Shown here: positions 1-3,930 of the stretch, in pieces
Layout: every line of letters starts with the position of its first letter
Numbering within the stretch: position 1 is the first letter of the stretch
Source: Acidobacteriota bacterium
GTDB taxonomy: Bacteria > Acidobacteriota > Terriglobia > UBA7540
Assembly: GCA_004298155.1 (NCBI GenBank)
Contig: SCRD01000016.1
Location: 1-64,000, forward strand
Reading direction: 5' to 3'
DNA: 64,000 bases
Position numbers and translations under genes: made by a program
Notes under the pieces: generated by a model
Seen by the model: only the letters and a program-made list of their open reading frames with translations
Told to the model about the DNA's origin: nothing
Database searches by the model: none

Positions 1-377
1 AAAGAATCGTAGCCCTCTACCTTGGGGAGAGGGCGCCGAAGGTACGATGGAGGGTGAGGGGGCGTTTGTGTCGCGGGTGGCTCATACGTTCTGCGGCCGG
101 GTAGCGCAGGGCTGTGCGCGGAGCAAGTAGCGAGGACCTCCGGTTTTGAGGTCCGCGGGTTTCCTGGTGATGGCCGCTCGCGGCGTTGTATCCTACCGCC
201 ATGTCGCGGCTCCGCGGGTGGCTCATACGTTCCGTGGCTGGCGCAGATGCTCGCCTTGCAGTGTCTGCGTTCTCGCGACGCGAGAGGCTCTTGCTTGTGT
301 TCATTCCAGCCGATCCCTTGCAATGATCGAGGTTGTTCGTTCAAAAAATAATTCCGCCAAATGGACCACGGCCACCC
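1..377. repeat. Left copy of ~376-bp imperfect direct repeat
   Basis: The block matches 1505-1880 with an almost constant offset of 1504 bases, by eye at roughly 80 % identity. It holds no convincing gene. Inside it are smaller palindromes: a GGACCTC/GAGGTCC stem near 135-155, a CGCAGA...TCTGCG stem near 243-269, and CTCGCG/CGCGAG near 272-284. The phrase GTGGCTCATACGTTC also occurs twice, near 77 and 217. The copy may extend left beyond the window. It reads as a mosaic of REP-like hairpins. Confidence 0.8.
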
Positions 378-438
378 GCCGCAATAACGCTGGGGTCGTG
401 ACCCAGCGGCCATTTTAACCCCGCTCAGCTTCGCTGAA

Positions 439-465
439 CGCAGACATCAAGAATCAATGTCTGCG
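439..465. repeat. REP-like hairpin, family B, copy 1
   Basis: A perfect 9-bp stem (CGCAGACAT / ATGTCTGCG) encloses a 9-nt loop. The flanks GCTCAGCTTCGCTGA on the left and CCACCCGC on the right are shared with the other family members. Compare 585-611 and 1953-1979. Confidence 0.75.
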
Positions 466-584
466 CCACCCGCGATGATCAAGGCCTCCCGCAAAAAATA
501 AGCCTCGATCTTGACTACGCCCGCTTACCGCGGTAATGCTGCGGCTCCTGTACGCTGCCATGCTGCTCACTGAGTTCTGCTGAA

Positions 585-611: not shown

Positions 612-798
612 CCACCCGCCCGCATAACATTCTCCCCGAAGGAGGAAAAGTGTTTTTACTTGACATCCCCTTTTATAGGACCCGTGGGCCACTACTTAGA
701 AGTGGCGGAGTCTTGCGGCCCTGCCGATTTGCGGTGGTGCCGCCACCAGGCTACAAGTGCCAGCGTCACTCCCCAGGCGGCGATCAGAATAAACCAGA

Positions 799-839
799 GC
801 GGGTAGCGCAGAGTTGTTCTGTAACTCTGCGGCTTTTTG
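799..839. repeat. REP element bounding the RAYT gene (left arm)
   Basis: These 41 bases are the exact reverse complement of 1418-1458. The element is itself a hairpin: GCAGAGTT and AACTCTGC face each other around a short loop. It abuts the stop codon of the transposase gene at 840. Paired, oppositely oriented REPs around a RAYT gene are the known 'REPtron' arrangement. Confidence 0.85.
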
Positions 840-1403
840 TCAGATTCGCGTTCGCTGGTCCGATGGCAGCAGGACGCGGTCAATGGGCAGCAACGGATGC
901 CGCGTGGTCTCGTCCTGGATAGATCCCGAATATTCTCTCGCGCTTGACCACGGCCAATCTTCGACCCGCTGAACCAGCGCCGCCTTGACCGGATTCAGGT
1001 GGATATATTCCACTGCCCTGTTGTATTCCCTCACCGTCCTCAGCGCACGGTCAAAGAACCGGCCCTGCCAGAGCCTTCCCGCTTGCTTCCGTCGGCTGTT
1101 CATCTGGCGCGTGGAGCTCACTTTGATCGATTCCATTACCACCGAAATCGTTTTCGGATATCGCACCCCGATCACCGCATGCCAATGGTCCGGCAGGAAA
1201 ACCCACGCTGTCAGCAGGAACTCGTGTTCAATCCGCCGCGCAGATATGACCCGGGCCAGAATCCTGAAATCGGCATCCCGCAGTTTCTTTCGCGACCGAT
1301 GCAGATTGCAGGTCACATAGAAATATCGATCGCTCAACACCAGCCGCCGCAAACGTGACATCCGGGAAGAGTAGCTTGGTCCTCTCAAAACCACAACACG
1401 CAA
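840..1403 (-). CDS. REP-associated tyrosine transposase (RAYT, Y1/HUH family)
   Basis: A 187-residue HUH-type single-strand DNA nickase/transposase of the TnpA-REP family. The HUH metal-binding motif is visible as PDHWH (His73 and His75). The likely nucleophile is Tyr133 in VEYIHLNPVKAALV, the most conserved phrase of RAYTs, followed by the family's WPWSS motif near 150. The start is uncertain: the longest frame uses TTG at 1403, while an ATG at 1361 (MSRLRRLVL) would fit the family N-terminus better; neither has a strong ribosome site. The gene is bounded by a perfect inverted pair of 41-bp hairpins, which RAYTs are known to bind and cut. It is probably domesticated rather than a free insertion sequence. 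The family call is confident. Confidence 0.9.
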   Translation of the reverse strand: MRVVVLRGPSYSSRMSRLRRLVLSDRYFYVTCNLHRSRKKLRDADFRILARVISARRIEHEFLLTAWVFLPDHWHAVIGVRYPKTISVVMESIKVSSTRQMNSRRKQAGRLWQGRFFDRALRTVREYNRAVEYIHLNPVKAALVQRVEDWPWSSAREYSGSIQDETTRHPLLPIDRVLLPSDQRTRI

Positions 1404-1417
1404 TTGGCAACCCCAGG

Positions 1418-1458
1418 CAAAAAGCCGCAGAGTTACAGAACAACTCTGCGCTACCCGC
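1418..1458. repeat. REP element bounding the RAYT gene (right arm)
   Basis: Exact reverse complement of 799-839 over 41 bases, lying upstream of the transposase start. The phrase GGGTAGCGCAG of this element recurs, less well conserved, inside both long direct repeats (near 102 and 1606), so the flanking repeats probably derive from the same family. Confidence 0.85.
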
Positions 1459-1469
1459 TGTTGCGAAAG

Positions 1470-1504: not shown

Positions 1505-1880
1505 AAAGAATCGTAGCCCTCTACCTTGGGGAGAGGGCGCCGGAGGTACGACGGCGGGTGAGGGGGCATTTGTGTCGCTAGTGGCGCATACGTTCCGCGG
1601 CCGGGTAGCGCAGGGTTGTGCGCGGAGCAAGTAGCGAGGACCTCCGATTTTGAGGTCCGCGGATTTTCTGGTGATGGGCGCTCGCGAAGTCGTATCCTCC
1701 CGCCATGTCGCGGCTCCGCGGGTGGCTCATACGTTCCGTGGCTGGCGCAGATGCTCGCCTTGCAGTATCTGCGTTCTCGCGGCGCGAGAGGCATTTGGTT
1801 GTTTTCACTCCACCCGATCCATTATGGCCAGAGAAGTGTCCTCCAGAAAATAAAACCTTCAGCTTGACCACGGCCACCCT
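1505..1880. repeat. Right copy of ~376-bp imperfect direct repeat
   Basis: It matches 1-377 in the same orientation. Differences are spread throughout rather than clustered, which suggests two old copies. One stem is better paired here than in the left copy: CGCAGAT/ATCTGCG near 1747-1775. With the RAYT and its REPs between the two copies, the patch has a composite look. No gene is supported between 1404 and 2011. Confidence 0.8.
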
Positions 1881-2556: not shown

Positions 2557-3930
2557 CTAGAACTCCTTGCATCCCGAAACGGTGAACGAAAAGGAGGCTC
2601 CCGGCGTGCCAGCTGTGGGACCGCCTAATGAGCCTGATGAGTTAGTGATGTCTTGGGATCCCGCCGCCGGAACTGGCTGCAACACGGCTGACACGCTCGG
2701 GCCGCTGAGGACAGCCCGTGCGTTGCTAAGGTTTCCGAATAGCAGTGGTCCTCCACCAACACCTTTGGTTGCCGGTACCGCAATCCCCGGGCCCGCACCA
2801 AGGCAGGCTGTGAATGGTTTCGCAATGATGGCTCCCGATATCGTAAGCCCGGATGCCGCTGCAGGACCAGCAGGGATGAGCGGAACGAATGCGGAACCCG
2901 CAACGACTGGGGCAATGAGGTGAAAACTTCCGATTGGCCTACCGAAGAAGGTGACAATGCAGTCCCAAGCACTGGGTGAGCCACCACCGACCCTGCTTTG
3001 AGTACACTCAACGTGAAAACCAAGAAAAGCATTGCCGAAGCCCGCGGGAAGTCCTCCGCCTCCCGCCAGCGGTGGTTGTCCGGCGGGCGGGGCGCTGGGC
3101 GGTGCGGGTGCGCCACCGCCGCCTCCACCGCCACCCCCGCCGCCAACCGGGTACCCACCGCCGCCCCCCGGCCAGTTGGTTTCTTGAGGGCAGTTCGGGT
3201 AGTCATCCCCTTCACTCCAGCACAATGCCCGGCAATGCGCGGGATCATCGGACTGATCACACCCGTCCAGCCCCAGCGGGTCGGTGAGGGTCGCAGGATT
3301 ATTCAGCACGTAGGCGTAGCGGTTGAGCGACTGGGGATTGCTCACGTTCCCGCCCATCGGATCGGGGCGTCATCCAGCGGCCGAGGTTGGGCGTAAAATC
3401 CCGGTTGGGCGTGGGAAAGAGCCCCGCATCCTGAAGCTGATGCATCCCGGCAAAGTGCATGACGTAGGGTTGCCCGGCGCGGGTCCAATCCTGCCCCCAC
3501 GGGTAGAAGAGCTCATCCTGCAGTTCCGCGCCAGTCTGGTCGGTGGTCACCGTCGTCGTCCCCAGGTTGTTGGTGTGCAGAATTTGCGTTGCCGAGCCGT
3601 ACTGCACCAGGGTACGACCGCCCATCGGAACGTCCTTGCCGAACCAGGCGGCAGTGCCCGCGCTGTAGAGGCCCAATTCCTCACCGCTCAGGCCGAACAG
3701 GTAATCGAACGTCCAGGAGCCGTTTGGCAGAAAGCGCTCGACGCGCTGCCCCAGAGAGTTGTACTTCAGAGTTGCCGTCGATCCCGAGTCCACCGACACC
3801 ATCCGGTCCTCGGCGTCCCACTGGTACGTGTGCGTCCCATCGGACGTCATGTTGCCCGCCGGGTCGTAACTTGCATTGAGGGCGCCGACTTTCGAGACCT
3901 GGTTTGTCGAAAGTGGGGCATCAATCGCGG
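2557..3930 (-). pseudogene. RHS-repeat protein, C-terminal fragment with a frameshift
   Basis: The upstream half carries RHS/YD-repeat phrases (YDPAGNMT, GTHTYQWDAEDRM, YNSLGQRVERF). The downstream half carries the core terminus (NRYAYVLNNPATLTDPLGL). The two frames join at 3364-3367, where a run of four G on the given strand appears one base too long; removing one restores the expected LGRWMTPDPMGG. Upstream homology stops near 3930, so the N-terminal bulk is absent. The tip after DPLGL is about 230 residues with a Gly/Pro-rich stretch and a hydrophobic part; I see no recognisable toxin domain. A sequencing error could explain the shift, but not the missing N-terminus. Confidence 0.75.

What the first reader, a model, noticed from the sequence alone, without database searches (positions are those of the whole stretch)
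799..1458. Complete REPtron: RAYT gene inside perfect inverted 41-bp hairpins
The two arms match over all 41 bases and one abuts the stop codon. An exact pair implies recent copying or ongoing maintenance, while the direct repeats outside are diverged. The DHWH and YIHLNPVK motifs suggest an active enzyme.
Basis: partly seen in the sequence, partly recalled or inferred. Interest (0 to 1): 0.68.

Follow-up and report, generated by a model that had tools for sequence, protein, structure and literature searches.

The report
Acidobacterial REP transposase unit, probably mobile
A small gene for a REP-handling DNA nuclease sits between two perfect mirror-image DNA hairpins; this is a known kind of arrangement, but its relatives in soil Acidobacteria occur as a roughly 650-base block at unrelated genome sites, which suggests that the whole block can move and not only the hairpins.

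Summary
Window 798-839 and 1418-1459 are a perfect 42-bp inverted pair. They enclose a 173-aa RAYT (840-1361, minus) whose stop codon touches one arm. Each arm is a textbook GTAG-tagged hairpin. The stem occurs 15 times in the genome, mostly as inverted pairs 80-150 bp apart. The RAYT keeps the HUH motif and tyrosine and is under purifying selection (dN/dS 0.13). So this is a REPtron of an Acidobacteriota MAG, a known kind.

The comparison adds more. RAYT clade predicts REP stem type (8/8 against 14/14). DNA similarity between RAYT loci stops 5-8 bp outside GTAG: of 93 ends that reach a REP, 5 run more than 15 bp past it. Copies 88-90% identical, REP to REP, lie at unrelated sites within one genome. 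A 94% identical pair lies in two genera whose rpoB is 81% identical. Congeners have the same gene neighbourhoods without the unit and without REPs. Published work calls RAYTs single-copy and vertically inherited, and REPtrons not mobile as a unit. This clade looks like an exception.

Transposition as a unit is inferred. Gene conversion between REPs, and MAG errors, remain possible. No empty site was found for the window's own copy.

The parts
798..839 (+). REP arm 1: AGCGG + GTAG + hairpin CGCAGAGTT-GTTCTGT-AACTCTGCG + GCTTTTTG
   Evidence: 100% inverted match; fold; dispersed copies
840..1361 (-). RAYT / TnpAREP gene, 173 aa from the ATG at 1361; HUH = DHWH, catalytic Tyr in EYIHLNPVK; stop abuts arm 1
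1362..1417 (-). 5' leader between RAYT start and arm 2 (an in-frame TTG at 1403 gives a 187-aa alternative start)
1418..1459 (-). REP arm 2, exact inverted copy of arm 1
798..1459 (.). inferred mobile unit (662 bp); edges 5 bp outside each GTAG, where homology with relatives stops
1..300 (.). outer direct repeat, copy 1 (mosaic of other GTAG/GTGG hairpin families); contig begins here
1505..1804 (.). outer direct repeat, copy 2 (92% to copy 1), with GTAG hairpin at 1631

Best explanation
A REPtron: a RAYT (TnpAREP-type HUH/Y1 single-strand nuclease) bracketed by an inverted pair of its own cognate REPs. SHOWN: gene family, conserved catalytic residues, purifying selection, GTAG hairpins, REP-type specificity by RAYT clade, and homology limits at the REPs with unrelated flanks. 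INFERRED: the RAYT binds GTAG plus hairpin on single-stranded DNA, cuts beside the two REPs, and moves the whole block as well as RAYT-less REP pairs (REPINs). The block is therefore a mobile unit in this clade and not a fixed housekeeping gene.
For: Family and structure match; invariant H59, H61, Y119, Q99, NP; dN/dS 0.13-0.23 in three pairs. Stem type follows RAYT clade, 8/8 against 14/14, Fisher p 3e-6. Within-unit REP similarity is 0.91 against 0.67 between units. Of 93 alignment ends reaching a REP, 88 stop within 15 bp of GTRG. Same-genome copies with unrelated flanks: G018 88%, G010 90%, and G011 96.7% for one end. Two genera share a 665-bp unit at 94% while rpoB is 81%. RAYT-free orthologous sites without REPs: G004:C231, also G036 and G031, for the G069 copy, and G018:C173 for the G011 copy. 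The G002 copy's neighbourhood in the window's own genome (C9) has no RAYT. Solo ends carrying the REP plus the last codons of the RAYT lie at C6:893-943 and C6:124251-124306.
Against: No nearly identical second copy of this RAYT is in its own genome; the nearest paralogue is 68%. No empty site was obtained for the window copy itself, since its left flank is the contig end. The RAYT-free sites lack more than the unit alone: the G011 site also differs by an ANT-like gene and the G069 site by neighbouring truncated copies. No target-site rule was seen. All genomes compared closely are draft assemblies, mostly MAGs.
Confidence: 0.7

Rival explanations
1. A classical stationary REPtron. The RAYT is a domesticated enzyme that only copies REPs/REPINs. 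RAYT blocks change place by homologous recombination or gene conversion between REP copies already at the target site, so homology ends at REPs without transposition of the unit.
For: REPs are dispersed and near-identical and could seed recombination. Published consensus is that REPtrons do not move as a unit (PMC6006769) and RAYTs are single-copy and vertical (PMC8049555). The own genome's paralogues are distant.
Against: RAYT-free orthologous sites in G004, G036, G031 and G018 show no GTRG-CG motif. The 94% unit shared by genera with 81% rpoB needs transfer.
Confidence: 0.22
2. An ordinary IS200/IS605 insertion sequence with terminal hairpins.
For: Same HUH/Y1 fold; unit-like edges; scattered copies.
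Against: Y motif is YIHLNP, not YxxxQ; NCBIfam IS200 scores 22 against a cut-off of 55; hairpins are inverted and GTAG-tagged; no near-identical copies of the window gene.
Confidence: 0.03
3. Assembly and binning artefacts of MAGs create the apparent moves, for example contigs joined at repeats.
For: Several RAYT contigs end inside the repeat (L036, L044, L047), and the window's contig starts in one.
Against: L039/L043, L035/L135, L045 and L103 are internal to contigs with both unit ends present. Many independent assemblies give the same edges.
Confidence: 0.05

Closest known systems
REPtron / RAYT (TnpAREP), e.g. E. coli 4er8 and Stenotrophomonas REPtron Sm
   Same: HUH/Y1 core, Y-x-x-x-NP motif, GTAG-tagged cognate REPs in inverted orientation around the gene, dispersed REP pairs
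   Different: HUH hydrophobic residue is Trp (DHWH) with WQ and YIHLNP, a combination in no row of Table 1 of PMC6006769; in this clade the unit looks mobile and multi-copy
IS200/IS605 TnpA (PF01797)
   Same: catalytic fold, hairpin-bounded compact unit, mobility
   Different: no YxxxQ, no TnpB, hairpins inverted and not in one orientation, GTAG tag
TIRYT / TIRtron (incl. Koribacter, Terriglobus; PMC3733652)
   Same: Acidobacteria, Y1 transposase between long inverted repeats
   Different: here the repeats are GTAG hairpins, not REP-unrelated TIRs with GGGGWSAS
REPIN / BIME
   Same: inverted REP pairs dispersed in the genome
   Different: REPINs lack the RAYT gene; here the gene lies between the two REPs

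Membership tests
RAYT / TnpAREP | HUH + Tyr with Y-x-x-x-NP, REP_Tyr_transpos family | tested here: met
   NF047646 111 bits, cut-off 80; invariant HWH, Y119, NP
REPtron | GT[AG]G-tagged hairpins flank the gene in inverted orientation | tested here: met
REPtron | cognate REP dispersed in the genome, mostly intergenic, often as inverted pairs | tested here: met
   15 exact stems, control 0; of the copies examined outside the RAYT, most have an inverted partner within about 150 bp and at most two overlap an ORF of 150 aa or more; copy number is modest
REPtron | each RAYT has its own REP type | tested here: met
   8/8 against 14/14 by clade; 0.91 against 0.67
REPtron (published consensus) | single-copy, vertical, does not move as a unit | tested here: not met
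   for the clade, not for the window copy alone:
RAYT / TnpAREP | cleaves and rejoins its REP on ssDNA | not testable with these tools
   needs biochemistry
IS200/IS605 | Y-x-x-x-Q transposase; same-orientation subterminal hairpins | tested here: not met
   YIHLNP; NF033573 22 against 55 bits; inverted arms
TIRYT / TIRtron | terminal repeats unrelated to GTAG REPs | tested here: not met
   arms are GTAG hairpins
RAYT subclasses 2.1-2.8 (PMC6006769 Table 1) | subclass HuH / W / Y motif triplet | tested here: inconclusive
   DHWH / WQ / YIHLNP matches no row; no tree with reference members was built

The most novel reading that the evidence does not exclude
A previously undescribed RAYT subclass (HWH motif) of Acidobacteriota is an autonomous single-strand transposon whose ends are its own inverted REPs. 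It would be the living link between IS elements and domesticated REPtrons, with REPINs as its non-autonomous derivatives.
Probability: 0.45. Interest if true: 0.72.

Novelty: new variant of a known kind. Interest (0 to 1): 0.5.

Why it matters
How RAYTs spread, and whether they are domesticated or still mobile, is an open question, because known RAYTs are described as single-copy and vertically inherited. A clade in which the REP-bounded RAYT block appears at different sites in one genome, and crosses genera, offers a natural system to test whether TnpAREP can transpose its own gene. It also gives about twenty RAYT/REP pairs of known specificity for recognition studies.

Tried and rejected
Cognate-REP abundance across 39 family genomes does not track a close RAYT well: similar stems occur widely and G027 has more than G000, so this is not used as evidence. 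A first dN/dS for L039/L043 was wrong because of an internal stop; the recount gives 15 synonymous and 12 nonsynonymous codons, with a nonsense TGA in L043, so that copy is decaying. In one search the context row for L009 used wrong coordinates for the window's second arm and is ignored. A target-site consensus was looked for by eye at the edges and none was seen. IS200/IS605 and TIRYT membership were rejected on motifs.

Full report
WHAT IS THERE. Window 798-839 and 1418-1459 form a 42-bp inverted pair without a mismatch. Between them, on the minus strand, lies a 173-aa frame starting at the ATG 1361 and ending at 840. An upstream TTG at 1403 would make it 187 aa, but all twelve aligned relatives begin at MSxL. 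The protein belongs to NCBIfam REP_Tyr_transpos (111 bits against a cut-off of 80), scores far below cut-off for IS200 (22 against 55), and matches the solved E. coli TnpAREP. The HUH motif is DHWH and the tyrosine lies in EYIHLNPVK; both histidines and the tyrosine are invariant in the alignment. Each arm contains GTAG directly followed by a 9-bp stem and a 7-nt loop and folds well beyond shuffles. This is the definition of a REP (PMC3733652, PMC8266576).

The exact stem occurs 15 times in the 5.2-Mb genome, and the reversed control pattern 0 times. Outside the RAYT, most examined copies have an inverted partner within about 150 bp, that is, REPIN-like pairs; at most two overlap an ORF of 150 aa or more. 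Two copies on contig C6 carry the REP plus the last bases of the RAYT gene (51-bp exact and 58-bp 98% matches), so they look like ends left over from a RAYT-bearing unit. The genome has nine RAYT-like hits. The nearest is 68% identical and has a different stem. The 92% direct repeats outside are mosaics that contain other GTAG/GTGG hairpins.

SPECIFICITY. In relatives the same architecture recurs: REP before the start, inverted REP after the stop, about 600-740 bp apart. The two REPs of a unit resemble each other more than REPs of other units do (0.91 against 0.67). In the protein tree two supported clades separate by stem type: 8 of 8 classifiable units with CGCAGAG against 14 of 14 with CGCRGACC. 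So REP and RAYT travel together. Rows are related, so the p value (3e-6) overstates the independent evidence.

EDGES OF HOMOLOGY. Pairwise DNA alignments between units stop almost always 5-8 bp outside the GTAG. Of 93 alignment ends that reach a REP, five run more than 15 bp beyond (pairs are not independent). Full alignments show random similarity outside. In genome G018 two copies are 88% identical over 655 bp, in G010 two copies 90% over 640 bp (its left end falls inside the REP), and in G011 one end is 96.7% over 389 bp, each at different sites. The G069 and G011 units, from two genera, are 94% identical over 665 bp REP to REP, while rpoB between the two genomes is 81% over 1.7 kb. One marker gene and draft bins limit the transfer claim.

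SITES WITHOUT THE UNIT. For the G069 copy the congener G004 keeps both flanking genes with about 115 bp between the conserved parts, where G069 has 1.47 kb holding the unit and truncated copies; G036 and G031 also lack it. For the G011 copy, G018 has the neighbouring aldo/keto reductase gene at 92% identity up to 1-3 bp from the unit's edge, then a short spacer without the unit, though an ANT-like gene is also missing there. None of these spacers contains a GTRG-CG REP motif. For the window's own genus, the 82% RAYT of G002 lies in a neighbourhood that exists in the window's genome on contig C9 without RAYT, while the window's neighbours (lptE, asd, pssA, psd) are found in G001 and G002 without RAYT. 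The window copy's own left flank is the contig end, so its insertion cannot be dated.

INTERPRETATION. Established: a REPtron with a constrained enzyme (dN/dS 0.13 against G002) and its cognate REPs. Inferred: the block itself moves. [quoted passage not shown] The main rival is recombination between REPs; the REP-free sites speak against it but do not exclude an earlier REP insertion.

NOVELTY. The motif set DHWH/WQ/YIHLNP fits no subclass row in PMC6006769 Table 1, and I found no paper in the held library on mobile REPtrons of Acidobacteria. The library is partial, so this is no proof of novelty. Hence: new variant of a known kind, interest 0.5.

Noticed in passing
L058 (G030:C66) and L100 (G030:C157): Tandem array of N-terminal RAYT fragments 90-97% alike with their flanks, as if a truncated unit had been amplified head to tail.
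   Followed up: partly
L039:3825-4360: Next to the intact unit lie truncated pieces: a left end of 157 bp and right ends of 161 bp, 90-97% alike, looking like internally deleted MITE-like derivatives.
   Followed up: partly
L043 (G011:C104:7183-7698): RAYT copy with one nonsense TGA; a recently decayed copy beside intact relatives.
   Followed up: yes
G059 (same class): 23 RAYT-like matches in one genome, the most seen; their REPs were only sampled.
   Followed up: no
window 415-480, 565-620, 1933-1988: A second hairpin family with GTGG tag (GTGGCGCAGACATTGATTCTTGATGTCTGCG and kin), widespread in the same genus.
   Followed up: no
window 2557-3850: RHS-repeat protein pieces in two frames at the variable contig end, absent from the syntenic place in G001.
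   Followed up: no
L097 (G018:C329): Two RAYT genes about 0.8 kb apart in convergent orientation, each with its own REP type.
   Followed up: no
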